Made by a program: the position numbers and the translations under genes. The notes beneath the pieces are model-generated. The model saw only the letters and a program-made list of their open reading frames with translations. It was not told where the DNA came from and did no database searches. From Haliclona indistincta (lineage: Eukaryota; Porifera; Demospongiae; Haplosclerida; Chalinidae), in contig OZ024790.1 of assembly GCA_964017065.1 (NCBI GenBank), positions 925,218 to 989,217 on the forward strand: 64,000 bases of DNA, read 5' to 3'. Positions 2,302-52,674 of this stretch are shown here, piece after piece; position 1 is the first letter of the stretch; each line of letters starts with the position of its first letter.

Positions 2302-4675
2302 ATGGCAGCAGACGAAGCATTAGCCGATACATTCAACGGTCCAGTGGGTCGATACTCACACGTTGCTGCATGCGTGGAGAATAAGTTATACATATGGGGA
2401 GGATGGAGGAAAGACACTCCTGGAATCCATCATGGTGATGAAAAAACCAAACTTACGTCTACAGTGGAGATTCTTGACTTAGCGGTAATTAAATGCGGTT
2501 GCTAGCATGTTTCAATTCAGCTGCTCTTTTTTCCTTATAAAGAAGCTACAGTGGAGTGTCCAGCATACTAAAGGTGATCCTCCACTGGGAGTGAGCTGGT
2601 GTGCCTACACTGTGGTGGGCAAGAAGATCATCATATATGGCGGATACTGTCAGCATGACTACTGCTATCACAACACACTACATGAGCTGGATACCTCGGT
2701 ACTCACATGGAGACAGTTAGCAGCTAGTGATGCTCCTGGAGCTCCTATGAAGAAGTGGGATTGTGGACTAGTAGCCTATGGTAACGACTCAGAAAAGCTA
2801 GCTGTCTTTGGAGGATATGGAACACTGAAAAAATCCCAAGAAGATGCAAGCTATATAAAAAACTCCACTTTGCCACCAGAAGCAAATTCTGGAACAACGA
2901 ATGAAATTCATTGCTACACATCAGGTGAGGGCATGAAAATAAAATCGATGAAGTTGAGGAAGACTTTCATATTTATTTTTATAGGAAAATGGTCCAGTCC
3001 TAAAGTATCTGGAGAAAGACCACCACCAATATTGGGATTCTCATACTTTAAAATTGCTAAGTATGAAGCGATGATGTTTGGAGGGTATGTTACAGGAGAC
3101 TCTACTGCCACGGGCAGAATGAACGACTTGTACAATCTGGATTTCACAAACACTGCAGTGAGTTTAGCTGTTTGCACTAACCAATGCATGTAGCTTAAGC
3201 ATTGTAATATACGTGGTGTTATTATAATTATTTTCGTGAATTTGCCTTTATTCAGTAAATTTCTTGTTTTTGGTCATTGCATGCCCTGTAGAAAAGTAGA
3301 GATATATTTTACGATTGAACAGTAATCGTGAAATTCATAAAATTGAGGACCACTATAATCCTTTTGTTTGCAGTATTTGCATGTACACATACTGCTGTAA
3401 TTAATTATTGACATGTTTCACATTACACTACCATAGAGTAAAATTTAATTCCATGCAAAGTCACATGTATGCGAGTTCATTTGTGACTTATGCTTGTGAA
3501 TAATAATAGTTATTAACACATGCATGTCTTAATTTATCCCAATTTTCACCTACGTATACTTGAACATTTCACGCCCTTGTGGCCATAAATGATGTGGTGT
3601 GTAGCTAATTTATGCATTCTACGATCATTATACAAAAATCTCTTGTAGCATGTTCACTGCACTCGAGTAACCAAACCAGAGAATGTTCCATGGCCTATTG
3701 TGAGAAGCCATCACTCATCATGTGTGTTAGCAAGTCCACACACTGGAAAATACAAGAAGACACACATCCTCACTGTTGGTGGAGAGGAAAACAATTGGGA
3801 AGGTGTGGAGAAAAAATTTGGCAAAACACTTGATGATAATTATTTGGATTGGAGAATGCTGTCAAGGAAAGATTAACTGGAAACAAGTATGTATTGCTTA
3901 ATGGCAGCATTTTGAATACTAACGTTCATTCTGCAGGTTCACATACCTGAAGATAGACTGGTTAGAATCAAGTGACAGCGTCATTCAGCTACTGTCTGCA
4001 AAGTAAGTGATTTCATTGCCATTGTGGTGGTGCAAGGTGGAGTAGAAGTACTGGTCAGAGATGAACGAATTGCCCAACAAATGGATATGCTTGCAGACAC
4101 TAGCATACTTGAGTTTGGTTAGTAGTCTACATGCATTGTAAGATCAAAGTATTTTGAAATTATACAGAATTGCATCATATTGGAGGCAATGAAGTGTGGG
4201 TATTGACCAGAGCTCTTGACCTCAGTTATTACAAAAAGGTGAGTGCACAAAGTTATGTAATAAGAAACCAGTGATAACTGTGTGACCATTGCAGATCATG
4301 TCCCAACGCAACCGCGGTCTATTTTTCCGCACTACTTCAGTATCGTCCCCTCCATCTTGTCCACTTAATATAAGAATGCTACTGTACTGTCAGAAAGGAG
4401 ACAAGATGATTAGAATCATTGATGAGCTTGCACCTAATTGGAGGAAAATAGGGCTTTTGTTAAATTTTTCTCCACCTGATCTTGACAACATCAATGAGCA
4501 TCATAAAGGTTCTCCTGAATCTTGCTGTGAAAAGATGCTTAACAACTGGCTAGCTGGGCGAAATGATGAACGAGATAAGCGTCCCAAGAACTGGGATACT
4601 CTATTGGAGGTGATCAAGGCTGCTAGCTGGGGAACACTGGCTAGTAACATTAAGGAAATTATTTTTGATGAATAG
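2302..4675 (+). CDS. Kelch-repeat protein with C-terminal Death domain (7 exons, two apparent lesions)
   Basis: Exons inferred from frame and GT-AG sites: 2302-2484, 2543-2924, 2985-3157, 3649-3886, 3937-4117, 4168-4238, 4295-4675. Exons 1-5 encode Kelch blades: GRYSHVAAC...LYIWGGW, GVSWCAYTVVGKKIIIYGGY, KLAVFGGYG, MMFGGY, and RSHHSSCVLAS...ILTVGG. The last exon encodes a Death domain (IIDELAPNWRKIG to the stop, about 85 residues). Kelch propellers bind partners and Death domains recruit apoptotic or innate-immune adaptors, so an intracellular signalling role is inferred. Two problems are visible: exon 4 must shift frame near 3835-3845 to reach the expected blade end WIGECCQGKINW, and exon 5 has an in-frame TGA at 3973-3975 between VRIK and QRHSATVCK. 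It is therefore a recent pseudogene, a damaged allele, or carries sequence errors. Family call is firm; functionality is not. Confidence 0.78.
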
Positions 4676-5155
4676 CTGTATGCATGGACGCCTTTATCTT
4701 TTTTCGTAATTGTTTACTTAATTAACTTAGTATAACTGGGTGCTATGCAAGTTAGCTGTAGTTATAGCTATTTTAGTGCCCTGCTTTATTATTAAAAAAA
4801 AATTCATTTTAAGAAAATACAAGTGTGTGTGTAAAATAGCGCCCAATGATAAACTAGCCAGTCTGCACAGAAAAATAACTGCACCGATGAGCTAGCTAGT
4901 AACGTATGCAATAAAAAGAGCTTGAGATATTTTTTACTGAATCACTAGAACGGAAAAATAAAGTATTGGCCTTAAGGTGAAACTTGAGAAAAATGTATAT
5001 CGACAAGCATGAAAGTGTACATAAAATAGATAACAATAACTTAAGCTTGATAAATGTGTTGAAAAAGGCGACTCGGATTTTTAGCGCTATAAAGACAAAC
5101 AACACTTGAACTGCTGACTGTATACGGCATAGTTAAAATTAATATTCATTGCATT
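4676..5155. other. Spacer between Kelch/Death gene and sulfatase array
   Basis: About 480 bp of A+T-rich DNA with no recognisable gene. It carries the 3' flank of the Kelch/Death gene and the upstream region of the first sulfatase. Confidence 0.5.
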
Positions 5156-5170
5156 ATTAGCCCCACCCAA
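5156..5170 (+). promoter_or_regulatory. Conserved upstream box of sulfatase 1
   Basis: ATTAGCCCCACCCAA, 12 bp before the ATG. The same box precedes all four sulfatase copies although the surrounding intergenic DNA differs, so it is likely a core promoter or initiator-proximal element. Confidence 0.55.
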
Positions 5171-5182
5171 GCGTTTGCAGCA

Positions 5183-6655
5183 ATGAGCAAATCAACTGTA
5201 CTCATTTTCGCGGCTCTGCTGGGCCTCGCGGCCACTCAGCCAACAGAAAGCAAGCCCAACATAGTGTTTACACTCGTGGATGACTGGGGATTCGCTGAAG
5301 CTGGTTTTAGAAACCCCGCGGTAAAGACACCAACTTTTGATATGCTAGCTACAACTGGTCTGGTGCTCAACCGCCACTACGTGTTCAAGTACTGCTCTCC
5401 ATCACGTGTCTCCTTCTTGACTGGTCGCTGGCCCCACCATGCCCACCAGTACAACATTCACCCAAACTTTAAGATCGGCGCTAACATCAACATGACTATG
5501 CTTCCTGCCAAGCTAAAGAAGGCTGGATACGCCACTCACATTGTAGGCAAATGGCACGAGGGCTTCTACCAGCGCAAATACCTGCCAGTGAATCGCGGGT
5601 TTGACACATCGTCTGGATTCCTGTCGGGTTCTGAAGGTCATTTCACGCAACAGCGAGAGTGCGCAGTGGATTACTGGAAGAACGACGCAGTTGATACACG
5701 CAATGGAACGTACGATGCCTACACGTACAAAGACGATCTCAATGATATTTTTGATCAACACGATGCATCAAAGCCGCTCTTCCTGTATCTACCACTCCAC
5801 AATATACACGGACCAATCGAGGCACCTGAAGAATGGCTGAACCTATACGCAGAGAACTCGACATGCAAGCAACGTCGCACCATCCAGGCCATGGTGAGTG
5901 TGGCTGATAATGTCACTGGTCACGTGGTGGATCTACTGAAGAAGAAAGGAATGTGGGACAACACTATATTCGTAGTATCAGCTGATAATGGCGGAGCAGC
6001 TTGCCAGAGTAGCAATCACCCATTAAAAGGATCAAAAGGGACATTCTTTGAAGGAGGAGTACGGGCCATTGCATTTACTAATGGTGGCCTACTACCGAAG
6101 GAGGTCAGAGGTACGACCACTGAAGGGTTCATCCATATTGCTGACTGGTACCCAACCTTCTGCAAGATGGCTGGAGTTGACTCGGATGATTCTGGTCCAG
6201 GCAAGTTCCCAGTGGATGGTGCAGATGTGTGGCCAATCATATCAGGTCAAACCACACAAACTACTCATTCAGAAATAGTGCTGGGATACAACTACACAGG
6301 CAAGGGAGCCATCATAGTAGGCGACTACAAGCTCATCTATGGTGCTCAAGGAGAAGGTTGTGACAGCGTAATGTGGTCTCCATTGAACTACCCATGCAGT
6401 GATGGTCCTAAAGGACCAAACTGTGATCCTTACTGCCTGTACAATATAGTACAGGATCCTGAGGAGAGGAATGAACTGTCTAAAACTGAACCAGATATGC
6501 TGAAGAAGTTGTTAGATCGATACAACAGCTACTCGAAGGAGCCTCGCAGCATGCAAGACCAGGGATACCACTCTGATGGAGAGGTGCCAGTTGAGGAAGA
6601 TGCCTGTGAATACATGAAGAAGAATGGAGGATACTGGCGACCATGGATCGAGTAG
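5183..6655 (+). CDS. Secreted arylsulfatase (ARSB/I/J-like), copy 1 of 4
   Basis: 490 residues, single exon. A signal peptide covers about residues 1-19. The sulfatase core follows: metal ligands LVDDWG (Asp33-Asp34), the formylglycine signature CSPSR with Cys71 and Arg75, GKWH (Lys123, His125), LHNIHGP (His209), ADNGG (Asp268-Asn269) and GSKGTFFEGGVR (Lys285). All residues known to bind Ca2+ and sulfate in the family are present, so an active enzyme is expected once Cys71 is converted to formylglycine by the cell's formylglycine-generating enzyme. Best matched by memory to arylsulfatase B/I/J, which remove sulfate from glycosaminoglycans; the actual substrate is unknown. GKWHEG replaces the usual GKWHLG in all four copies. 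The lack of introns next to intron-containing genes suggests an ancestral retrocopy or intron loss before tandem duplication. Confidence 0.93.
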   Translation: MSKSTVLIFAALLGLAATQPTESKPNIVFTLVDDWGFAEAGFRNPAVKTPTFDMLATTGLVLNRHYVFKYCSPSRVSFLTGRWPHHAHQYNIHPNFKIGANINMTMLPAKLKKAGYATHIVGKWHEGFYQRKYLPVNRGFDTSSGFLSGSEGHFTQQRECAVDYWKNDAVDTRNGTYDAYTYKDDLNDIFDQHDASKPLFLYLPLHNIHGPIEAPEEWLNLYAENSTCKQRRTIQAMVSVADNVTGHVVDLLKKKGMWDNTIFVVSADNGGAACQSSNHPLKGSKGTFFEGGVRAIAFTNGGLLPKEVRGTTTEGFIHIADWYPTFCKMAGVDSDDSGPGKFPVDGADVWPIISGQTTQTTHSEIVLGYNYTGKGAIIVGDYKLIYGAQGEGCDSVMWSPLNYPCSDGPKGPNCDPYCLYNIVQDPEERNELSKTEPDMLKKLLDRYNSYSKEPRSMQDQGYHSDGEVPVEEDACEYMKKNGGYWRPWIE

Positions 6656-6787
6656 AAATAACAGTAGTGCTAAATATGCTGTTATGCTGCGCCAGCTCAG
6701 ATATAGGTATTGGTGTAAACATGCAAAGTAGTAATGGAAACAAAAATAATAATACTATTCATTATTATCACACAAATAAAAAAAATT

Positions 6788-6802
6788 ATTAGCCCCGCCC
6801 AA
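6788..6802 (+). promoter_or_regulatory. Conserved upstream box of sulfatase 2
   Basis: ATTAGCCCCGCCCAA, 16 bp before the chosen ATG at 6819. It differs from the other three boxes at one base (G for A). An AATAAA lies at 6775-6780, only a few bases upstream, so the 3' end of copy 1 and the promoter of copy 2 nearly touch. Confidence 0.55.
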
Positions 6803-6818
6803 ATTGTTTGTTGTAGCA

Positions 6819-8285
6819 ATGTTGGCTGTCCTCTTGCAAATGGCTCTACTGGGCCTCGTGGCTGCTCAGCCAGTTAGCAACAAGCCGAACATAGTGTTTA
6901 CACTCGTGGATGACTGGGGATTTGCTGAAGCTGGTTTCAGAAACCCCGCAGTAAAGACACCAACCTTTGATATGCTAGCTACAACTGGTCTGGTGCTCAA
7001 CCGCCACTACGTGTTCAAATATTGCTCTCCATCACGTGTCTCCTTCCTGACTGGTCGCTGGCCCCACCATGCGCATCAGTACAACATTCACCCAAACTTT
7101 AAGATCGGCGCTAACATCAACATGACTATGCTTCCTGCCAAACTAAAGAAGGCAGGATACGCCACTCACATTGTAGGCAAATGGCACGAGGGCTTCTACC
7201 AGCGCAAATACCTGCCAGTGAATCGCGGGTTTGACACATCGTCTGGATTCTTGTCGGGAGAAGAACGTCATTTCACCCAGGAGAGAGAGTGCGCAGTGGA
7301 TTACTGGAAGAACGACGCAGTTGACACGCGCAATGGAACGTACGATGCCTACACGTACAAAGACGATCTCAGTGATATTTTTGATAAACACGATGCATCA
7401 AAGCCACTCTTCCTGTATCTACCACTCCACAATATACACGCACCAATCGAGGCGCCTGAAGAATGGCTGAACCTATACGCAGAAAACTCAACATGCAAGA
7501 AACGTCGCACCATCCAGGCCATGGTGAGTGTGGCTGATAATGTCACTGGTCACGTGGTGGATCTACTGAAGAAGAAAGGAATGTGGGACAATACTATATT
7601 CGTAGTATCAGCTGATAATGGCGGAGGTCCCTGTCAAAGCAGTAATTTCCCGCTGAAAGGATCAAAGATGACATTCTTTGAAGGAGGAGTACGATCCATT
7701 GCATTTACTAATGGCGGTCTACTACCGAAGGAGGTTAGAGGTACGACCACTGAAGGGTTCATCCATATTGCTGACTGGTACCCAACCTTCTGCAAGATGG
7801 CTGGAGTTGACTCGGATGATTCCGGGCCAGGCAAGTTCCCAGTGGATGGTGCAGATGTGTGGCCAATCATATCAGGTCAAACCACACAAACTACTCATTC
7901 AGAAATAGTGCTGGGATACAACTACACAGGCAAGGGAGCCATCATAGTAGGCGACTACAAGCTCATCTATGGCGCTCAAGGAGACACATGTGACCATCTC
8001 ATGTGGTCTCCATTGAACTATCCATGCAGTGATGGTCCTAAAGGACCTGATTGTGATCCTTACTGTCTGTACAATATAGTACAGGATCCTGAGGAGAGGA
8101 ATGAACTGTCTAAAACTGAACCAGATATGCTGAAGAAGTTGCTAGATCGATACAACAGCTACTCGAAGGAGCCTCGCAGCATGCAAGACCAGGGATACCA
8201 CTCTGATGGAGAGGTGCCAGTTGAGGAAGATGCCTGTGAATACATGAAGAAGAATGGAGGATACTGGCGACCATGGATTGAGTAG
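6819..8285 (+). CDS. Secreted arylsulfatase (ARSB/I/J-like), copy 2 of 4
   Basis: 488 residues from the ATG at 6819, chosen because it matches the start of copy 3 (MLAV..LQ.ALLGL); the upstream in-frame TTG at 6804 is not a likely start. All catalytic motifs of copy 1 are kept (CSPSR Cys69, GKWHEG, ADNGG, GSKMTFFEGGVR). Differences from copy 1 concentrate in three places: the loop after GFLSG (EERHFTQERE), the loop after ADNGG (GPCQSSNFPL) and GDTCDHLMW near residue 393. HNIHAP replaces HNIHGP. The stop of copy 1 is only 163 bp upstream. A diversified paralogue with related substrate range is the simplest reading. Confidence 0.93.
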   Translation: MLAVLLQMALLGLVAAQPVSNKPNIVFTLVDDWGFAEAGFRNPAVKTPTFDMLATTGLVLNRHYVFKYCSPSRVSFLTGRWPHHAHQYNIHPNFKIGANINMTMLPAKLKKAGYATHIVGKWHEGFYQRKYLPVNRGFDTSSGFLSGEERHFTQERECAVDYWKNDAVDTRNGTYDAYTYKDDLSDIFDKHDASKPLFLYLPLHNIHAPIEAPEEWLNLYAENSTCKKRRTIQAMVSVADNVTGHVVDLLKKKGMWDNTIFVVSADNGGGPCQSSNFPLKGSKMTFFEGGVRSIAFTNGGLLPKEVRGTTTEGFIHIADWYPTFCKMAGVDSDDSGPGKFPVDGADVWPIISGQTTQTTHSEIVLGYNYTGKGAIIVGDYKLIYGAQGDTCDHLMWSPLNYPCSDGPKGPDCDPYCLYNIVQDPEERNELSKTEPDMLKKLLDRYNSYSKEPRSMQDQGYHSDGEVPVEEDACEYMKKNGGYWRPWIE

Positions 8286-8430
8286 AAATAGCAGTAGTGC
8301 TAAATATGCTGTTATGCTGCGCCAGCTCAGAAGATTATTGGTGTACATGTAAACATGCAAAGTAGTAGTGGAAGCAAATTTAATTATAATAATAATTATT
8401 ATTCATAACAATAATTGTTATCACTTAATA

Positions 8431-8445
8431 ATTAGCCCCACCCAA
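8431..8445 (+). promoter_or_regulatory. Conserved upstream box of sulfatase 3
   Basis: ATTAGCCCCACCCAA, 16 bp before the ATG, identical to the boxes of copies 1 and 4. Confidence 0.55.
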
Positions 8446-8461
8446 ACTGTTAGTTGTAACA

Positions 8462-9928
8462 ATGTTGGCTGTCTTCTTGCAATTGGCTCTACTGGGCCTC
8501 ACTGTTGCTCAGCCAGTTAGCAACAAGCCGAACATAGTGTTTACACTCGTGGATGACTGGGGATTCGCTGAAGCTGGTTTTAGAAACCCCGCGGTAAAGA
8601 CACCAACCTTTGATATGCTAGCTACAACTGGTCTGGTACTCAACCGCCACTACGTGTTCAAGTACTGTTCTCCATCACGCATCTCCTTCCTGACTGGTCG
8701 CTGGCCCCACCATGCGCACCAGTACAACATTAAACCCAACTTTAAGATCGGTGCTAACATCAACATGACTATGCTTCCTGCCAAGCTGAGGACGGCAGGG
8801 TACGCTACCCACATTGTAGGCAAATGGCACGAAGGATTCTACGAGCGCAAGTACCTGCCAGTGAATCGCGGGTTTGACACATCGTCTGGATTCCTGTCAG
8901 GAGCTGAAGGTCATTTCACTCAGCAGCGAGAGTGCGCAGTGGATTACTGGAAGAACGACGCAGTTGATACACGCAATGGAACGTACGATGCCTACACGTA
9001 CAAAGACGATCTCAGTGATATTTTTGATAAACACGATGCATCAAAGCCGCTCTTCCTGTATCTACCACTGCACAATATACACGGACCCATCGAGGCACCT
9101 GAAGAATGGCTGAACCTATACGCAGAGAACTCGACATGCAAGCAACGTCGCACCATCCAGGCCATGGTGAGTGTGGCTGATAACGTCACTGGTCACGTGG
9201 TGGATCTACTGAAGAAGAAAGGAATGTGGGACAACACTATATTCGTAGTATCAGCTGATAATGGCGGAGCAGCTTGCCAGAGTAGTAATAACCCGTTAAA
9301 AGGATCAAAAGGGACATTCTTTGAAGGAGGAGTACGATCCATTGCATTTGCTAATGGTGGTCTACTACCAAAAGAGGTTAGAGGTACGACCACTGAAGGG
9401 TTCATCCATATTGCTGACTGGTACCCAACCTTCTGCAAGATGGCCGGAGTTGACTCGGATGATTCTGGTCCAGGCAAGTTCCCAGTGGATGGTGCAGATG
9501 TGTGGCCAATCATATCAGGTCAAACCACACAAACTACTCATTCAGAAATAGTGCTGGGATACAACTACACAGGCAAGGGAGCCATCATAGTAGGCGACTA
9601 CAAGCTCATCTATGGTGCTCAAGAGGACAAATGTGACCATCTCATGTGGTCTCCATTGAACTACCCATGCAGTGATGGTCCTAAAGGACCTGATTGTGAT
9701 CCTTACTGTCTGTACAATATAGTACAGGATCCTGAGGAGAGGAATGAACTGTCTAAAACTGAACCAGATATGCTGAAAAAGTTGCTAGATCGATACAACA
9801 GCTACTCGAAGGAGCCTCGAAACATGCAAGATATGGGGTACCACACTGATGGAGAGGTGCCAGTAGAGAAGGATGCCTGTGATTACATGAAGAAGAATGG
9901 AGGATACTGGCGACCATGGATCGAGTAG
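8462..9928 (+). CDS. Secreted arylsulfatase (ARSB/I/J-like), copy 3 of 4
   Basis: 488 residues, single exon, signal peptide about residues 1-17. Catalytic residues as in copy 1, with formylglycine Cys69 in CSPSR. The variable loops resemble copy 1 in one place (EGHFTQQRE and AACQSSNNPLKGSKG) but copies 2 and 4 in another (CDHLMW), a mosaic pattern expected from gene conversion. Private changes include INKPNF-type sequence near residue 90 (NIKPNF) and, near the C-terminus, EPRNMQDMGYHTDGE and CDYMKK. It lies 176 bp after copy 2. Confidence 0.93.
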   Translation: MLAVFLQLALLGLTVAQPVSNKPNIVFTLVDDWGFAEAGFRNPAVKTPTFDMLATTGLVLNRHYVFKYCSPSRISFLTGRWPHHAHQYNIKPNFKIGANINMTMLPAKLRTAGYATHIVGKWHEGFYERKYLPVNRGFDTSSGFLSGAEGHFTQQRECAVDYWKNDAVDTRNGTYDAYTYKDDLSDIFDKHDASKPLFLYLPLHNIHGPIEAPEEWLNLYAENSTCKQRRTIQAMVSVADNVTGHVVDLLKKKGMWDNTIFVVSADNGGAACQSSNNPLKGSKGTFFEGGVRSIAFANGGLLPKEVRGTTTEGFIHIADWYPTFCKMAGVDSDDSGPGKFPVDGADVWPIISGQTTQTTHSEIVLGYNYTGKGAIIVGDYKLIYGAQEDKCDHLMWSPLNYPCSDGPKGPDCDPYCLYNIVQDPEERNELSKTEPDMLKKLLDRYNSYSKEPRNMQDMGYHTDGEVPVEKDACDYMKKNGGYWRPWIE

Positions 9929-10035
9929 AATAACTAAACATAGCTGCTGACTGTGCTGTGTTATGTTGTGTTTTATGAGATTTGTCTGTGACACTAAGAA
10001 GCAGTTAGGTTTAATATTATTCATAGTTCATATTA

Positions 10036-10050
10036 ATTAGCCCCACCCAA
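10036..10050 (+). promoter_or_regulatory. Conserved upstream box of sulfatase 4
   Basis: ATTAGCCCCACCCAA, 14 bp before the ATG. The intergenic stretch that holds it is only 136 bp long. Confidence 0.55.
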
Positions 10051-10064
10051 AGGTTGCAGCAGAA

Positions 10065-11540
10065 ATGAACGTGGTGTTGGCTGTCTTCTTGCAGTTGGCT
10101 CTACTAGGCCTCGTGGCTGCTCAGCCAGTGAGCAACAAGCCCAACATAGTGTTTACACTCGTGGATGACTGGGGATTCGCTGAAGCTGGTTTTAGAAACC
10201 CCGCGGTAAAGACACCCAACTTCGATATGCTAGCTACAACTGGTCTGGTGCTCAACCGCCACTACGTGTTCAAGTATTGCTCTCCATCACGTGTCTCCTT
10301 CCTGACTGGTCGCTGGCCCCACCATGCGCATCAGTACAACATTCACCCAAACTGCAAAGTCGGTGCTAACATCAACATGACTATGCTTCCTGCCAAGCTG
10401 AGGACGGTAGGATACGCCACTCACATGGTCGGGAAATGGCACGAGGGCTTCTACGAACCGAAATACTTGCCGTTCAACCGCGGGTTCGACACATCGTCTG
10501 GATTTCTTAACGGCGCCGAGGCTCATTTCACCCAGGAGAGGGATTGCGCAGTGGATTACTGGAAGAACGACGCAGTTGATACACGCAATGGAACGTACGA
10601 TGCCTACACGTACAAAGACGATCTCAGTGATATTTTTGATAAACACGATGCATCAAAGCCACTCTTCTTGTATCTACCACTCCACAATATACACGGACCA
10701 ATCGAGGCACCTGAAGAATGGTTGAACCTATACGCAGAGAACTCGACATGCAAGCAACGTCGCACCATCCAGGCCATGGTGAGTGTGGCTGATAATGTCA
10801 CTGGTCACGTGGTAGAGCTACTGAAGAAGAAAGGAATGTGGGACAACACTATATTCGTAGTATCAGCTGATAATGGCGGAGCTCCCTGTGAAAGCAGCAA
10901 TTACCCGCTGAAAGGATCGAAGATGACATTCTTTGAAGGAGGAGTACGATCCATTGCATTTACTAATGGTGGCCTACTACCGAAGGAGGTCAGAGGTACG
11001 ACCACTGAAGGGTTCATCCATATTGCTGACTGGTACCCAACCTTCTGCAAGATGGCCGGAGTTGACTCGGATGATTCCGGGCCAGGCAAGTTCCCAGTGG
11101 ATGGTGCAGATGTGTGGCCAATCATATCAGGTCAAACCACACAAACTACTCATTCAGAAATAGTGCTGGGATACAACTACACAGGCAAGGGAGCCATCAT
11201 AGTAGGCGACTACAAGCTCATCTATGGCGCTCAAGGAGACACATGTGATCATCTCATGTGGTCTCCATTGAACTACCCATGCAGTGATGGTCCTAAAGGA
11301 CCTGATTGTGATCCTTACTGTCTGTACAATATAGTACAGGATCCTGAGGAGAGGAATGAACTGTCTAAAACTGAACCAGATATGCTGAAAAAGTTGCTAG
11401 ATCGATACAACAGCTACTCGAAGGAGCCTCGCAGCATGCAAGACCAGGGATACCACTCTGATGGTGAGATACCAGTAGAGAAGGATGCCTGTGAATACAT
11501 GAAGAAGCATGGAGGATACTGGCGACCATGGATAGAGTAG
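10065..11540 (+). CDS. Secreted arylsulfatase (ARSB/I/J-like), copy 4 of 4
   Basis: 491 residues with a slightly longer signal peptide (MNVVLAVFLQLALLGL). All catalytic positions are conserved (Cys72 in CSPSR, GKWHEG, ADNGG, Lys in GSKMTF). It is the most divergent copy in its N-terminal half: NCKVGANIN gives an extra cysteine, followed by THMVGKWHEG, FYEPKYLPFNRG and a reworked loop FLNGAEAHFTQERDC. The C-terminal third is almost identical to the other copies, which suggests recent conversion there. It ends the array; downstream DNA to 11915 has no gene. Confidence 0.93.
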   Translation: MNVVLAVFLQLALLGLVAAQPVSNKPNIVFTLVDDWGFAEAGFRNPAVKTPNFDMLATTGLVLNRHYVFKYCSPSRVSFLTGRWPHHAHQYNIHPNCKVGANINMTMLPAKLRTVGYATHMVGKWHEGFYEPKYLPFNRGFDTSSGFLNGAEAHFTQERDCAVDYWKNDAVDTRNGTYDAYTYKDDLSDIFDKHDASKPLFLYLPLHNIHGPIEAPEEWLNLYAENSTCKQRRTIQAMVSVADNVTGHVVELLKKKGMWDNTIFVVSADNGGAPCESSNYPLKGSKMTFFEGGVRSIAFTNGGLLPKEVRGTTTEGFIHIADWYPTFCKMAGVDSDDSGPGKFPVDGADVWPIISGQTTQTTHSEIVLGYNYTGKGAIIVGDYKLIYGAQGDTCDHLMWSPLNYPCSDGPKGPDCDPYCLYNIVQDPEERNELSKTEPDMLKKLLDRYNSYSKEPRSMQDQGYHSDGEIPVEKDACEYMKKHGGYWRPWIE

Positions 11541-11915: not shown

Positions 11916-12261
11916 CTATGTGTTGGTATGCATTCGGGTGCTGGTGATAAGAGTGATTCTTGTTATCTCGGGTCTGTAATGTCTGAATGGGATGTGGTAA
12001 CTGGAGGTACCAGCGCTGACGTACACATATACGCCATCTTGTGGGTTGTATAAACCGGCAAAGAATGGGTTATACAAGTATACTGGTAGCATGAACGGCA
12101 GGACCTGCCCAGCGTGAGTGTGACCGGAGAGGACCAGTCTCACGTCGTCCCACAGTATGGCTTCAGCGGCTGCCTTGGGCTGATGGGCTAGTATTATGGT
12201 GGGCACTCCCTTGTAGCGCCCTGTGAGAGCACGATGCAGGTCCATGCTGTGAGCACCGTAT
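11916..12261 (-). CDS. TMPPE-like metallophosphoesterase, last exon (C-terminal part)
   Basis: About 114 residues from a splice acceptor (CTTGTTTCTCAG, exon begins at 12261, codon phase 2) to the stop at 11916. It encodes the C-terminal part of a calcineurin-like phosphoesterase: YGAHSMDLHRAL, TIILAHQP, LVLSGHTHAGQ (the GHTH metal-binding motif), NPFFAGLY and VYVSAGTSSYHIPFRHYRPEIT. The combination fits the family of transmembrane proteins with a metallophosphoesterase domain. The N-terminal membrane part and the first metal motif of such a protein are at 55835-56419 on the same strand, and the two pieces do not overlap. Upstream of this exon is a 200-bp run of N that could hide the central exon. 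Confidence 0.8.
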
Positions 12262-12298
12262 CTGAGAAACAAGAGAATAGAACAATATTAAACAGCAT

Positions 12299-12498
12299 NN
12301 NNNNNNNNNNNNNNNNNNNNNNNNNNNNNNNNNNNNNNNNNNNNNNNNNNNNNNNNNNNNNNNNNNNNNNNNNNNNNNNNNNNNNNNNNNNNNNNNNNNN
12401 NNNNNNNNNNNNNNNNNNNNNNNNNNNNNNNNNNNNNNNNNNNNNNNNNNNNNNNNNNNNNNNNNNNNNNNNNNNNNNNNNNNNNNNNNNNNNNNNNN
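12299..12498. other. Assembly gap (200 N)
   Basis: An exact run of 200 N. It lies just upstream of the metallophosphoesterase exon and marks a contig join, so linkage across it is less certain than elsewhere. Confidence 0.99.
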
Positions 12499-12796
12499 AA
12501 TGGATAAAGGTGTTTGCAGTACTGACTTGCAATCCCGCCCTATTCGTCTATCAGTCACTAGGACTGGTGGCCGATAATAGATTGCTTTTGCCGAACATCA
12601 ATGTTTTCGGCTACCCACTTTCTTCGTCTCCACAGCAGACAAAGAAGCAGTTACGAGCTGCATATTTGCAATGCAGGCAGAGGAAGTGTGTGTCTATACG
12701 TAGGTCAAGTTTGATCTGTGTAGCGTATTTGCAAGTGTACGAACGAGTGGCCGATAATAGATGGTGGCCGAATATTGGTGGCTTACTCTACAGGGC
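12499..12796. mobile_element. Right half of a GTGGCCGATAATAG-type TA element
   Basis: The right end (GTGGCCGATAATAG, then TGGTGGC and TTACTCTA at about 12750-12796) matches the termini of the large palindromic element at 51366-52494, which ends GTGGCCGATTATAC...CATTACTC followed by TA. The left half is missing or inside the gap. Confidence 0.5.
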
Positions 12797-12839
12797 TAAA
12801 AGGTTAATTTCATAGCATTGCTAAAATAGACTATGTCCA

Positions 12840-16925: not shown

Positions 16926-17068
16926 TTCCACTCTTTTACAATCCGTAGATCCTCTGAGACAAGTATAGCTTCAACCCTTCCACTCCCAATAGATGTTTTC
17001 ATAGTGTCAAAGAAGCAAGAGAAGCCATATTTGGTAGTACGATAGATGTTGTCTATCATAGTAATCAC

Positions 17069-17580
17069 TAGTCTCATCCCCAGACCACTCTCCCTTCTGC
17101 TATGCTTGGGAGGGTCTGGTTAAATGAAGGCAAATTCCTGGTTCAATGACGTAATTGTCACGCGCGAAATCATGTGCACAACAATTAGCTACCTGGTCTT
17201 CCATCAAGCTTCAATAGACACACAACTATAACTATGCTAGATTTACTGTTATGAAGCAAGTTGAAGATACTTGGTAGGATCTTCAACAGCGCCTGTAGGA
17301 AGAGAAACAAACCTGCTACGAAATTGACCACGACTTCTTGCTACTCAGCCGACAAACATGAATATCCAAGCTGTTCAGCGCTCTTCGATATCGATTCCAT
17401 GATAGCATTCCTTGGGTAAGCCATGACCAATGTCGCATGCAGGTCATGTGAATTTTGGGAAATACTGCAATCTGATTGGTATTTCACAATTCGAAACATC
17501 ACGGAACCAGGAATTTGCCTTCATTTAACCAGACCCTCTCCCAAGCATAGCGGAAGGGGTGTGGTCTGGGGACGAGAATA
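17069..17580. mobile_element. RecQ-type TIR element E1 (9-bp target duplication)
   Basis: 512 bp with inverted ends TAGTCTCATCCCCAGACC and TATTCTCGTCCCCAGACC, each followed by a short hairpin ending GGGTCTGGTTAAATGAAGGC. Direct flanks AGTAATCAC (17060-17068) and AGTAATCAA (17581-17589) are an 8-of-9 target duplication. It lies inside the beta duplicate; the alpha copy lacks it (GTGATTACT near 13340). The interior, on the minus strand, is a decayed RecQ helicase fragment. Confidence 0.8.
17170..17400 (-). pseudogene. Decayed RecQ-like helicase N-terminus inside E1
   Basis: Reading leftward from 17400: SAEQLGYSCLSAE, stop, QEVVVNFVAG, then in a shifted frame VSLPTGA (remains of the Walker A loop), then LPSIFNLLHNSKSSIVIVV, the strand before motif Ia. 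Order and spacing follow RecQ motifs 0, I and Ia. At least one stop and one frameshift are present, so it is not functional. Recognition is by comparison with the similar fragments in E2 and E3 and with RecQ family motifs. Confidence 0.65.
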
Positions 17581-17589
17581 AGTAATCAA

Positions 17590-28433: not shown

Positions 28434-29010
28434 TAGCCTCGTCTCCAGGCCCCGCCTCCCAAAGCTGAGGAGAGGGCCTGGTACGCACTGTGTGCGCATG
28501 CGTCTATTATTCATGGAACTTTAATTGCGATGACGTCGTTAGATGGTAATTATTTATGTGACGTATTTGCCTACGGGCGATATTATTGCAGCTTTCACTC
28601 CCTTTTGCCGTAAGCCATCCACCTGGTCAACCACAAGAGACACCAACTGAGAGACAACTACTACTAAGCTGTCAGTACGACTGTACTTATGGTCGAAAAC
28701 GAATGATAAAACTTGATAGCACAATATCCAGTAGGTAGCCACACGAAAACGTCATGGCCTTCATATACATGGCTCACGCTGGCTAACTGTTCTGGCTTTG
28801 GTGTCATCCGATGCACTGGAGTGCATACAACATAGTAGCCTCGAAACCTGCTCCACTAACTTCAGCCATGATCTGTGACGTAAAGTGTAGCGATCATGAA
28901 CGGAAAATATCCGGTGATTTCTGGAATTCCGTGAATTCCGGCGCATGCGTACACAGTGTGTACCAGGCCCTCTCCTCAGCTTTGGGAGGCGGGGCCTGGG
29001 GACGAGGCTA
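28434..29010. mobile_element. RecQ-type TIR element E2 (9-bp target duplication)
   Basis: 577 bp, inverted ends TAGCCTCGTCTCCAGGCC and TAGCCTCGTCCCCAGGCC, each continuing into a hairpin that closes with GAGAGGGCCTGGTA. Perfect duplication AACTGAACC at 28425-28433 and 29011-29019. The empty site is seen in the other MITE F copy (ACAACCGATCCGTGCTGG near 63514). The interior carries a RecQ helicase fragment on the minus strand. Confidence 0.9.
28560..28810 (-). pseudogene. Decayed RecQ-like helicase N-terminus inside E2
   Basis: Reading leftward: TPKPEQLASVSHVYEGHDVF, then VWLPTGY where the Walker A loop loses its GKS, then after a frameshift CYQVLSFVFDH and SLVVVVSQLVSLVVDQVDGL, then RQKGVKAAIIS. 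This is the RecQ motif 0 / I / Ia order (family pattern: LKPEQ, LPTGxGKS, VVVSPLxSLMxDQV). Loss of GKS and frameshifts show it is dead. Aligns with E1 and E3 fragments. Confidence 0.75.
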
Positions 29011-29443
29011 AACTGAACCGTGCTGGAAGCGGCCCACCTATGGTTGGTGTGCCGCGGTGGTGCAGTTCAGTTCAGTTGAGCCTCAGTTCAGTTGCGTTCA
29101 TACTGTCAGAGATTTGCAACCGGGCCGGCTCGGTTCTGTTCTATTCTAGCGCGTAGTGTGAACGCGGTATTAGATGGGGCAACGCCAGAGAGCAGATCTA
29201 AGTGTCTTTTGACGTATAAAATTCATCGCCAGGCGAAATATCAGCGTTTGAACGCTAATACATTGTATGTAGCCGCCATCTTTTTTTCTCGTTCAACCCT
29301 ACATAGGGAGGCACTACCGTGCGTCCCTAATACCAGAAAAAAATGACACCGACAACAATTTTCCGGACTTTCCTCCGTATAGTAACAGCGACAATTTGTA
29401 TTACGGGAATTTAGGTCAAACAAACAACCAGGCACCTGCAGTC

Positions 29444-29999
29444 TAGTCTGGGGTCCCGCCCCTTTCGCAACGAGGAAAGGGTCTGGTAAAAACCGTACAA
29501 TAAAGTTGTGCAGCGGAAGCGCAATGTATTACATAATGATCAGCCGCAACGCTCTGTGTACGTTCTCACTTGGCTCTCCATCAACGCGTTCAAAAGAGAT
29601 ACAACAATTATAATACTCTTTTAGCTTCCCTCGTAGCTTGTCGAACGTAGAGCCGTGAAGCAGAGCGCGCGTCTTCCCAAATCCCGTAGGAAGCGATCCG
29701 AAGACATCCTGCCCACCAACAAAGGCTAACACTACCTCTTCTTGTTCGGGTTTTAAACGGTCGTACCCAAGCTCTTTGGCTGTCTGTCTGGCGGCCGATA
29801 GTATTGCCTCCCTGTCCCACCTTGGCTTGCTCATTCTTCTGTCTGCGGTCATACGCCCACGTGAAACACGAACATTACGTAACTAATGATATGCACTGTA
29901 ATCTGATTGGGCGCACTCTACAAGGTGCCGTGCACAACTTTCATGTACGGTTTTTACCAGACCCTTTCCTCGTTGCGAAAGGGGCGGGACTCCAGACTA
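29444..29999. mobile_element. RecQ-type TIR element E3 (9-bp target duplication)
   Basis: 556 bp, inverted ends TAGTCTGGGGTCCCGCCCCT and TAGTCTGGAGTCCCGCCCCT, about 57 bp long and closing with GGAAAGGGTCTGGTA. Perfect duplication CCTGCAGTC at 29435-29443 and 30000-30008. Interior codes a RecQ N-terminal fragment on the minus strand. Confidence 0.9.
29529..29852 (-). CDS. RecQ-like helicase N-terminal fragment inside E3 (best preserved)
   Basis: 107-residue open frame. ILSAARQTAKELGYDRLKPE then QEEVVLAFVGGQDVFGSLPT and GFGKT give motif 0 (the Gln-containing LKPEQ) and an intact Walker A (SLPTGFGKT). After GKT comes TFDKLRGKLKEYYNC, matching the FDKLRG segment found after motif I in these helicases, and then unrelated sequence to the stop. 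Motifs Ia-VI, the Zn-binding domain and HRDC are absent, so at most an ATP-binding stub could be made. The start lies about 150 bp inside the right end of E3, as in E1. Confidence 0.7.
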   Translation of the reverse strand: MTADRRMSKPRWDREAILSAARQTAKELGYDRLKPEQEEVVLAFVGGQDVFGSLPTGFGKTRALLHGSTFDKLRGKLKEYYNCCISFERVDGEPSENVHRALRLIIM

Positions 30000-30008
30000 C
30001 CTGCAGTC

Positions 30009-43348: not shown

Positions 43349-44399
43349 TGGACATCTTATTTGATCTGCTTGTGTCACGTGGTCTTCCCTTGCCTGTGGT
43401 TCGTTTGCTAAGTTCTTGGTACTCTACGCAAAATTTATGAGGTGGAGAAATGCTCTCTCTTCTCCTTTCACAGTATCCAATGGAGTTCGCCAGGGTGGTG
43501 TTTTGTCACCTGTATTGTTTTCTATTTATCTAGATGAGCTGCTTTTAAAGCTTGAGTCTACTGGAGTTGGTTGTTTTTGGAATAGCCATTATGCAGGCGC
43601 CCTTGCATACGCAGATGATATAGTGCTTTTGGCACCTTCTGCCTCTGCATTACGCACCCTTCTTGCTACTTGTGAATCACATGGTAGTTGTCTTGGTCTA
43701 CATTTCAATCCTCTCAAGACTCAGCTTATTAATTTTCGTTTGGGTGTATCTGATTTTGACAATATTAATTCTAATTTCCTCTTCTGTGACTCGCCTCTCC
43801 AATTTTCTAATACCGTCGTGCACTTGGGTAACAAGCTAAAGTATAATCTCTGTGACGATGAAGATATTCTGCTAAAATCTCGTTATTTATCCAGGGCTGC
43901 TAATAGCTTATTTTCTACTTTTCCAAATATCGGACCGATTCCTATGACATATCTGTTTTCATCATATTGTCTAGCTCTGTATGGTTGCGAACTTTGGAAT
44001 ATTTCTTCTCCTGGTCTAAGGAGTTTAGAGGTTGTATTAAACAACTGTCTGCGGCGTATCTGGAGATTACCTCGTAGAACGCATACCGGTATCCTGCATC
44101 GATGTGCTAGAGTCCAAAGTATTTATAACTTGGTTTCTTCAAGATCGCTTAAATTTATCAAAAATGCAAAAAACAACTCAAACACTTTGGTCAAACTGAT
44201 CTTTAACGAAGATTTGGCTTATACTTTCTCTGGACACAATATTTTCTGTGGTCGAACTTATTTAAAAGAATATTCCACTGATGACGAGAGATGTGCTATA
44301 GTATTAAGAGATTTCCTGCTGTCATCAAGCACTGTTAACATTTGTCAGGGAAGCTCTTCTATTGACTTAATGCTAAGGACAATTGCTACTGATTAACAT
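43349..44399 (+). pseudogene. Non-LTR retrotransposon reverse transcriptase, 5'-truncated
   Basis: From about 43349 (MDILFDLLVSRGLPLPVVRL) the frame stops near 43427; a one-base shift restores MRWRNALSSPFTVSNGVRQG and continues to the stop at 44394-44396. Visible RT motifs: GVRQGGVLSPVLFSIYLDEL (motif B region), LAYADDIVLLAP (catalytic YADD, about residue 68 of the second frame), and CLGLHFNPLKTQLINF. The C-terminal CLRRIWRLPRRTHTGILHR stretch is typical of CR1/L2/jockey-like ORF2 tails. The N-terminal endonuclease is absent. A (AAT)n run 45 bp after the stop fits the element's 3' end. Truncation plus frameshift make it inactive. Confidence 0.85.
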
Positions 44400-45959: not shown

Positions 45960-47900
45960 GCTGAACTGCTATAGTCAGCCACAGCAGCCACTGATGTAGG
46001 GATGTATGGTCTGTTAGCAAGTCAGTTGTGTTACCATTCCATGCTAGTTCCTTGTTGGTTTAAATTGTGGACCAGTAGCAGATTGCTTTATCCCTACAGT
46101 GTTCCACACGAAGAGAGTAAAAAAATAGTTTTTGCACATTATTTTTGCTTCATATCTCAGTAAGTAATGATCCTACTGGCATGTTGCATGTATCATAATG
46201 ATCCCCTTTCCTTACTGAACACCCTGATTCATATAGCTTCAAGTCACGTGACATGGGCGTGGCAAAACATGGCGGGATATCGGACCCTCTGGAAGGACAA
46301 GGTTTAGGAGAGAACTTTTGAATTACTGGTAGTTAAGATTTCTTAACGCTGCATTAAAACCCTCACCCAGGGCGCCTACCTGTGGGCTGAGTGTTTTGCT
46401 TTAAGTTTCACTAGTTCGGCGTCAGGAAGCAGATAATAGCGTCCTCGACCGACCAAAAGCTTTAGGACGGGAAATCCGATTCTCTGGGAGTTAAGGTCCA
46501 AGATTAGGAAATTGCATTGCCAATATATATATTCATCTTTACTTTAGAACTTGCGCAGAGTCTGTAGAAATACGCACATCGACAAACGCGACTGTTCTGT
46601 GCTGGAGAGCTGTTTTCTGACCGCCATCTTGCTAGTTTAATGGATTTTTGTGATGTCACGCATAATATTTTATTATCATGCGATGAGTCATAACTAATAC
46701 AAATACATTGAATCAGTTGAATAGTTATGACTCATCACTGACTAATAACCAACGTGCCATTAACTAGCAAGATGGCGGTCAGAAAACAGCTCTCTAGCAG
46801 AGAACAGTCGTGTTTGTCAATGTGCGTATTTCTACAGACCCTGCGCAAGTTCTAAAGTAAAGATGAATGTATTGGCAATGCAATTTCCTAATCTTGGACC
46901 TTAACTCCCAGAGAATCGGATTTCCCGTCCTAAAGCTTTTGGTCGGTCGAGGACGCTATTATCTGCTTCCTGACGCCGACCTAGTGAAAGTTAAGGAAAA
47001 ACACTCAGCCCACAGGTAGGCGCCCTGGGTGATGGTTTTAATGCAGCGTTAAGAAATCTTAACTACCAGTAATTCAAAAGTTCTCTCCTAAACCTTGTCC
47101 TTCCAGTGGGTCCGATATCCCGTCATATTGTACCACGCCCATGCCACGTGACTTGAAGCCATATGAATCAGGGTGTTCAGTAAGGATAGAGGATCATTAT
47201 GATACATGCAACATGCCAGTAGGATGATTAGTTACTGAGATATGAAGCAAAATTAGCAAAAACTAGTTTTTTACTTTCTACATGTGGAACACTGTACATC
47301 CTTTTGATTTCATTAGAAATCTTTTTATTTCTTGTTTGTGTCCTTTTTCTTTTTCAGTGAGTTTCAAATTTTTGGTGCAGTTCAAATTCATTTATCTCTT
47401 TGTTTCCACCATTAGTTTGGTTTGCTGTTGCTGATAATTTCTTTTTAACTTGTAGCTCATAATTATTCCTTAATACTGAAACCACATTTGTGACAACTGT
47501 TCGTGATCGTGAACTCGACAAATGTATATCGTCGTTTCGCAAAAAAACTAAGTTCAAAAGGCACCTGCCAGGAGAATTTCACGACTGCTCGTGGGTGTTT
47601 TGGTCTCGGCACTGCTCGCGTAAAGCCAGGCGCTAGGCACGTTGAAGAAAGAAGAAGAAAACGAAGATCAGTGACGTAACTGGATTTTCATTGTTTCACT
47701 TTAGTAACACTTTCGAGCAATCTCCTTGCTACTGTAAGATGGGGCAACGCCAGAGAGCAGATATAAGTGTCTTTGGACGTATAAAATTCATCACCCGGCG
47801 AAATATCAGCGTTTGAACGCTAATACATTGTATGCAGCCGCCATTTTGTTTTCTTGCTCATCCCTACATAGGGAGTCACTACCGTGCCTCCCTAATAACT
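45960..47900. repeat. Dispersed repeat H, copy 2 (interrupted by palindrome P)
   Basis: Second copy of 27540-29340. It is uninterrupted where copy 1 carries F, but is itself split at 46096/47295 by palindrome P, for which copy 1 (CCCTACATCCTTTTG near 27650) is the empty site. Confidence 0.75.
46097..47294. mobile_element. Palindrome P, foldback element with TA target
   Basis: 1198 bp whose two halves are nearly perfect inverted repeats, with a small spacer around 46700. Ends CAGTGTTCCACA and its complement, flanked by TA (46095-46096, 47295-47296). TA duplication and CAGT ends fit Tc1/mariner-type mobilisation. No transposase. Confidence 0.9.
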
Positions 47901-51074: not shown

Positions 51075-52674
51075 TAGGCTTGCGCCGATTATGCTTTTAA
51101 ATTTGCCTATTATGCTTTTTAGCAATGCTTTAATTTTCCCCCTATTATGCTTCAATTTTTCCCTATTATGCTACGTAATGCCAGGTGTCTAATTGATTAT
51201 AATAACACTGTTCAGACACTGTGGGCGCTCTCAGCCTGTCTAGTATCGATACCGAAGTGCTGGAAGTGCCTGTTCCTTCACTCACCGAAACTGCCACTTC
51301 ACCGTCGGCCAAGTAGCCAAGTTCGTCGTCATCGCTAATGTCTGCAGAGTCTAATAGATCATTTAGAGTAATGAACCAATAATCGGTCACCACGTATAAT
51401 CGGCCACTTCGTGACAGCCAGGTAGAGGAGGAGGCGAAACCAGCTATACACTGGTGTATGACTCTGTTGTAGGCCTGTATGCAACCAAAGATTCGAAGGG
51501 CTCAGTTCTTGTTTACGCGAGACACAGCCAAGAAGATGAGAGTGGCCGGAAAATGCAAATATCGGTCGAAAGTGTCAGTTTTCGGACAACTAGCCCGTAC
51601 TCTGCTGCTTCAAAGAACAAGAGCACAACTTCTACATAAATAGCAAGAGTTACCTTCGTTCAATAATCACAGCCAACATCTACGGCCCAGCTCAACTCAA
51701 AGCTAGTCTACAAGCAGTATGAAACTGGGCGGTGCCAATGATCAATAATCGGCATTTATTTTCAATATTTTAATACAATAATCATCTTTTACAAAGTTTG
51801 CACGTTGTTCAAGACTTCCACGTGTTAAAATACAATCGTCTGCTGTCAACAGGTACATTTGGTTGTAAAACTAATAATTCTAATTTTATCACGCCTGTTT
51901 TCACATGTCACGGACATATACATGCTTGGACAACTTTTATTATGGCCATGACGCCTGAATACAGGCCTGATAAAATATAGAATTAGTTTTACAAGTAAAC
52001 GTTATACCTGTTGACAGCAGACGATTGTATTTTAACACGTAGAAGTCTTGAACAACGTGCAAACTTTGTAAAAGATGAATATTGTATTAAAATATTGAAA
52101 ATAAATGCCGATTATTGATCATTGGCACCGCCCAGTTTCATACTGCTTGTAGACTAGCTTTGAGTTGAGCTGGGCCGTAGATGTTGGCTGTGATTATTGA
52201 ACGAAGGTAACACTTGGTATTTATGTAGAAGTTGTGCTCTTATTCTTTGAAGCAGCAGAGTACGGGCTAGTTGTCCGAAAACTGACACTTTCGACCGATA
52301 TTTGCATTTTCCAGCCACTCTCATCTTCTTGGCTGTGTCTCGCGTAAACAAGAACTGAGCGCTTCGAATCTTTGGTTGCATACAGGCCTACAACAGTGTC
52401 ATACACCAGTGTATAGCTGGCTTCGCCTCCTCTTCTACCTGGCTGTAACGAAGTGGCCGATTATACGTGGTGACCGATTATTGGTTCATTACTCTATTTA
52501 TGACTAGATCTACACTCGTGTTCGAGCTTGCCGCCATTTTAGCACACGCCTACCACCACGCCCACTGAATGACGTCATTTGGAGGAAATTGTACCTATTA
52601 TGCTAGCATTATGCTCAATGCTTTATCATGCCGAAAATGCCAAAAATTATGCTAGCATAATCGGCTCAAGCCTA
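51075..52674. mobile_element. hAT-like MITE (8-bp target duplication), split by P2
   Basis: Ends TAGGCTTGCGCCGATTATGC and, reversed, TAGGCTTGAGCCGATTATGC, flanked by GCGCGTGC at 51067-51074 and 52675-52682. Eight-base duplication fits hAT. The palindrome P2 sits within it. Confidence 0.75.
51366..52494. mobile_element. Palindrome P2 (1.1 kb foldback, TA flanks)
   Basis: Arms of about 480-500 bp are near-perfect inverted repeats around 51930. Ends GAGTAATGAACCAATAATCG. TA flanks (TTTA before, TATT after). The same end sequence occurs at 12750-12796. Both arms give the same YDSVVGLYATKDSK frame, which is thus not evidence of a gene. Confidence 0.85.

What the first reader, a model, noticed from the sequence alone, without database searches (positions are those of the whole stretch)
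28434..29010. A family of TIR transposons that carry RecQ-like helicase N-termini
Three separate elements (E1 17069-17580, E2 28434-29010, E3 29444-29999) share: length 510-580 bp; ends of the form TAGNCTSRTCYCCAGRCC; a subterminal hairpin closing in AGGGYCTGGT; 9-bp target duplications; and, on the same strand relative to the ends, an N-terminal RecQ helicase fragment (LKPEQ, LPTGxGKT, VVVVSxLVSL). Their sequences differ from each other throughout, so they are distinct subfamilies and not recent copies. The constant feature suggests deletion derivatives of a larger element whose own protein starts with a RecQ-like helicase next to one end. The alternative is repeated capture, as in Pack-MULEs. 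I know of no named animal transposon class defined by a RecQ-family helicase with 9-bp duplications.
Basis: partly seen in the sequence, partly recalled or inferred. Interest (0 to 1): 0.88.

Follow-up and report, generated by a model that had tools for sequence, protein, structure and literature searches.

The report
Shrunken helicase-bearing jumping genes (AcademH-like)
Three short stretches of DNA in this window are likely shrunken copies of a jumping-gene group, probably the already named AcademH, whose full-length copies elsewhere in the same genome carry a RecQ-type helicase gene facing a gene for a predicted transposase.

Summary
In detail: E1, E2 and E3 have inverted ends, target duplications (8 of 9, 9 of 9 and 9 of 9 bases) and decayed RecQ N-terminal pieces on the same strand. 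Long elements exist in the same genome: four copies of 5.1-5.4 kb with matching ends and an exact 9- or 10-bp duplication carry a RecQ-like helicase gene facing a Pfam DUF6589 gene. E3 and E1 align to both ends of two of them, as internal-deletion derivatives would; E2 matches only in translation. The element helicases form a clade apart from three host RecQ genes, so repeated capture is unlikely. The DUF6589 model's best fold matches are transposases, with a conserved D/D/E triad. The founding AcademH paper was not held, so the transposases could not be compared. Verdict: real, well explained, probably a new member of a known kind.

The parts
17060..17068 (.). E1 left target duplication AGTAATCAC (8 of 9 match the right copy)
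17069..17580 (-). E1, 512-bp element; strand given is that of the RecQ piece
17209..17430 (-). E1 decayed RecQ N-terminal piece (82 aa, 56% to the L066 element)
17581..17589 (.). E1 right target duplication AGTAATCAA
28425..28433 (.). E2 left target duplication AACTGAACC
28434..28502 (+). E2 left inverted arm
28434..29010 (-). E2, 577-bp element; strand given is that of the RecQ piece
28578..28807 (-). E2 decayed RecQ N-terminal pieces in two frames
28942..29010 (-). E2 right inverted arm
29011..29019 (.). E2 right target duplication AACTGAACC
29435..29443 (.). E3 left target duplication CCTGCAGTC
29444..29512 (+). E3 left inverted arm
29444..29999 (-). E3, 556-bp element; strand given is that of the RecQ piece
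29595..29834 (-). E3 RecQ N-terminal piece (81 aa, 59% to the L065 element)
29931..29999 (-). E3 right inverted arm
30000..30008 (.). E3 right target duplication CCTGCAGTC

Best explanation
E1, E2 and E3 are likely non-autonomous deletion derivatives of DNA transposons that probably belong to the named AcademH lineage, and whose 5.1-5.4 kb copies in the same genome carry, between inverted ends and 9- or 10-bp target duplications, a RecQ-like helicase gene facing a gene for a predicted DDE transposase (Pfam DUF6589). Shown: the ends, the duplications, the gene content and facing order of four long copies, and the alignment of E1 and E3 to both ends of a long copy. Predicted: the DUF6589 protein, in at least two copies preceded by a zf-AD-type zinc finger, would bind and cut the inverted ends and insert the element with a staggered cut that repair turns into the duplication. 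Inferred: the RecQ protein would unwind DNA at the ends or the target, or help the replication that fills the gaps; short copies such as E1-E3 would be moved in trans by the proteins of a long copy.
Confidence: 0.8

Rival explanations
1. The DUF6589/RecQ elements are a separate, unnamed superfamily that merely resembles AcademH in having a helicase and 9-10 bp duplications.
For: No paper in the library holds 'DUF6589', and the closest solved folds are hAT and P transposases; [quoted passage not shown]).
Against: A helicase plus 9 or 10 bp duplications, in animals, is what is stated for AcademH (and the title of the cited paper).
Confidence: 0.13
2. Unrelated short transposons repeatedly captured pieces of host RecQ genes, as Pack-MULEs do.
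For: Three window elements with dissimilar interiors each hold a RecQ piece.
Against: The helicases of the long copies form one clade apart from the three host RecQ genes found; the pieces of E1 and E3 sit next to an end as in a long copy that they match at both ends.
Confidence: 0.02
3. The elements are a lineage of Kolobok, as KolobokH also carries RecQ.
For: KolobokH encodes RecQ, and one red-algal Kolobok has it on the complementary strand.
Against: Kolobok is stated to make TTAA 4-bp duplications and KolobokH to be found only in fungi; here the duplications are 8-10 bp of mixed sequence.
Confidence: 0.03

Closest known systems
AcademH lineage of Academ (Kojima 2020, doi 10.1186/s13100-020-00211-1; title in reference lists and citing passages seen, paper not held)
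   Same: Helicase-encoding DNA transposon of animals and fungi with 9 or 10 bp duplications (passage in PMC10045372); RecQ helicase reported in Academ (passage in PMC3627910).
   Different: Nothing tested differs; the transposase was not compared, and facing gene order, the DUF6589 label and helicase-only short copies could not be checked against the paper.
KolobokH (PMC9587614, passages and section 10 read)
   Same: DNA transposon with a DDE transposase and a RecQ helicase.
   Different: Kolobok makes TTAA 4-bp duplications; [quoted passage not shown]
hAT (Hermes) and P element transposases
   Same: Best fold matches of the DUF6589 model, with a helical insertion before the last acidic residue.
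   Different: Only 6-8% identity in those rows; hAT usually makes 8-bp duplications (PMC12730594 passage); no RecQ gene in either (recalled).

Membership tests
AcademH | Encodes a helicase (RecQ type) | tested here: met
   RecQ-like genes in the long copies: DEAD and Helicase_C in L044 and L065, Helicase_C in L066 (its first exon was not scanned), RecQ_Zn_bind above cut-off in L044 and just below in L066; L070 by tree only
AcademH | 9 or 10 bp target duplications | tested here: met
   20 of 28 exact 9 or 10 bp, 5 more with one mismatch, 2 exact 8, 1 none
AcademH | Academ-type DDD/E transposase by sequence | not testable with these tools
   No Academ sequence at hand; founding paper not held
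AcademH | A transposase of DDE/RNase H-like fold | tested here: inconclusive
AcademX | 3 or 4 bp target duplications | tested here: not met
   8-10 bp in 27 of 28, allowing one mismatch
Kolobok / KolobokH | TTAA 4-bp target duplications | tested here: not met
   8-10 bp mixed sequences in 27 of 28
hAT or P superfamily | Transposase fold | tested here: inconclusive
Pack-MULE-like capture | Captured piece closest to a host gene | tested here: not met
   Element helicases form a clade apart from three host RecQ genes

The most novel reading that the evidence does not exclude
DUF6589 plus RecQ is an unnamed animal transposon superfamily in which the helicase is a working half of the transposition machine: its 1.9 kb copies keep an open helicase core and zinc-binding part while losing the transposase, so the helicase itself would be what makes those copies spread.
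Probability: 0.1. Interest if true: 0.7.

Novelty: new member of a known kind. Interest (0 to 1): 0.38.

Why it matters
It gives a likely identity, transposase, to a Pfam family of unknown function (DUF6589) and ties it to RecQ in one mobile unit. Fifteen loci, the reference one included, share 3.9-kb stretches of one long element at 99.8-100% identity (three of the fifteen lack about 970 bp), which suggests recent movement. If the AcademH filing holds, it gives that lineage a structural model and a genome where activity could be studied. It also warns that RecQ-like gene counts in such genomes may be inflated by transposons.

Tried and rejected
Capture of host RecQ pieces: rejected on the tree. 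KolobokH: rejected on duplication length. A conserved subterminal hairpin: of 10 ends folded as single-stranded DNA, E1, E2 and L044 beat shuffles (z -2.3 to -2.8), E3 and six others did not. dN/dS between subfamilies: synonymous sites saturated, no usable ratio. The correlation of RecQ and DUF6589 identities over 10 pairs of 5 elements (r 0.94) hangs largely on one close pair and is not used. Viral contigs: 4 pattern hits, none a relative. PDB sequence search with the DUF6589 profile: one match only, E 0.25. Searches by family accession (TIGR00614, PF20231) did not complete. A first guess that the 5.7 kb TAGTCTCGTCCCCAGACC pair in L044 was the full element was wrong: its flanks do not match, and the full element is nested inside it. 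Short elements: 15 of 19 tested hold a RecQ piece and 0 of 19 a transposase piece, but several were fetched because they hold RecQ, so this is no unbiased count. No tool names the organism; animal origin is inferred from a Death-domain match in the window and from DUF6589 proteins named as Hydractinia (with zf-AD) and Mytilus. The fold test compared only the 1000 chains that Foldseek ranked highest.

Full report
What is in the window. E1 (17069-17580), E2 (28434-29010) and E3 (29444-29999) are 512, 577 and 556 bp long. E2 and E3 have 69-bp inverted arms at 96% and exact 9-base duplications; E1 has 8 of 9. In each, a decayed RecQ N-terminal piece lies on the - strand. No element has the quoted LKPEQ, LPTGxGKT and VVVVSxLVSL motifs in one open frame.

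The long elements. A protein search of the window's own genome (144 Mb, unnamed) with the E3 piece gave 108 matches. Reading out from some of them gave elements of 1.9-2.1 kb with identical 75-base ends and 8-9 bp duplications (L039-L042); in L039 and L042, where frames were listed, the only frames of 120 aa or more inside the element are helicase. Reading between pairs of ends and around DUF6589 matches gave four complete elements of 5110, 5126, 5164 and 5370 bp with exact duplications TGTCACACA, GTGTCTGGG, CCCAATGTGT and ATTTCAGAT. One was found by its ends; three were fetched because of helicase or DUF6589 matches. All four have the same plan. From one end runs a RecQ-like gene: DEAD and Helicase_C in L044 and L065, Helicase_C in L066, whose first exon was not scanned; L070's helicase was placed by tree only and has one stop in frame. 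From the other end, on the opposite strand, runs a DUF6589 gene: Pfam matches in L044, L065 and L066, and 61% identity to L044's protein in L070. An upstream zinc-finger-like exon scores above the zf-AD cut-off in L044, just below in L070, weakly in L065 and not at all in L068. L039 matches the 5370-bp element at 98% over its helicase-side 1.66 kb and 99% over the other 270 bp, so it is an internal deletion; its helicase frame keeps the core and the zinc-binding cysteines but ends sooner than that of the long copy.

E1-E3 as derivatives. E3 aligns with both ends of the 5110-bp element (76% over the helicase-side 442 columns, 90% over the other 105) and E1 with both ends of the 5370-bp element (65% over 459, 81% over 106); E2 matches the 5126- and 5164-bp elements only in translation. 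A genome search with E2 scored 40 of 171 candidates, 86-100% identical.

How tight the link is. With all 108 helicase rows and 68 of 105 DUF6589 rows, 19 of 66 merged DUF6589 places have a RecQ match within 8 kb, 17 of the 19 pairs facing; random placement gave a mean of 0.82 and at most 4. With 48 of 71 rows, 17 of 108 and one match seen in L070, 43 of 66 have a facing RecQ within 3 kb. In the 20 loci centred on DUF6589 (L045-L064) RecQ is found in all 20, L061 with only 24 residues. Fifteen of these loci, the reference one included, share one element at 99.8-100% over the aligned stretches; three of the fifteen lack about 970 bp.

Helicase origin. On a maximum-likelihood tree of 29 proteins, five element helicases and nine public proteins lie on one side of a 100/100 branch, and three host RecQ genes with twelve other RecQ proteins on the other.

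Comparison with the known. A passage in PMC10045372 says that AcademH generates 9 or 10 bp TSDs and AcademX 3 or 4 bp, and links this to the helicase and nuclease they encode. A passage in PMC3627910 mentions RecQ helicase in Academ. The founding paper's title names animals and fungi; the paper was not held. KolobokH shares RecQ but not the duplication. Ten library searches were made; the one for DUF6589 found no paper.

Results that do not fit neatly. Two 3.6-3.7 kb pairs of exact E2-type ends hold neither gene and have inverted rather than direct flanks. One 4.3 kb element holds facing remnants of both genes and an extra gene with a RAG1_imp_bd match above its cut-off. Three duplications are exactly 10 bp and two 8 bp.

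Verdict. Not found in the passages seen are the assignment of DUF6589 as the likely transposase, the facing gene order in four complete copies, and helicase-only derivatives; the founding paper may hold some of these.

Noticed in passing
window 5093-11540: Four tandem, very similar open frames of about 500 aa on the + strand; the two scanned match Pfam Sulfatase strongly.
   Followed up: partly
window 43365-44396: Reverse transcriptase (RVT_1) open frame, likely a retrotransposon remnant.
   Followed up: no
window 51364-52496 and 46140-47255: Long near-perfect inverted repeats (492-nt arms at 98%, 389-nt arms at 95%).
   Followed up: no
window 4286-4675 and 2489-3193: Death-domain and Kelch-type matches about 1 kb apart, suggesting an animal genome.
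   Followed up: no
window 12163-12815: The open-frame listing shows runs of X, so a stretch here reads N.
   Followed up: no
L039-L042: 1.9-2.1 kb elements with identical 75-base ends and 8-9 bp duplications that hold helicase frames and no transposase frame where listed (L039, L042).
   Followed up: partly
L043 2838-4299: Gene with a RAG1_imp_bd match (E 7e-06, 26.2 bits against a cut-off of 23.3) inside a 4.3 kb element with a 9-bp duplication; possibly another nested transposon.
   Followed up: partly
L075, L076: 3.6-3.7 kb sequences with the same 18-base ends but inverted flanks and no helicase or DUF6589 match.
   Followed up: partly
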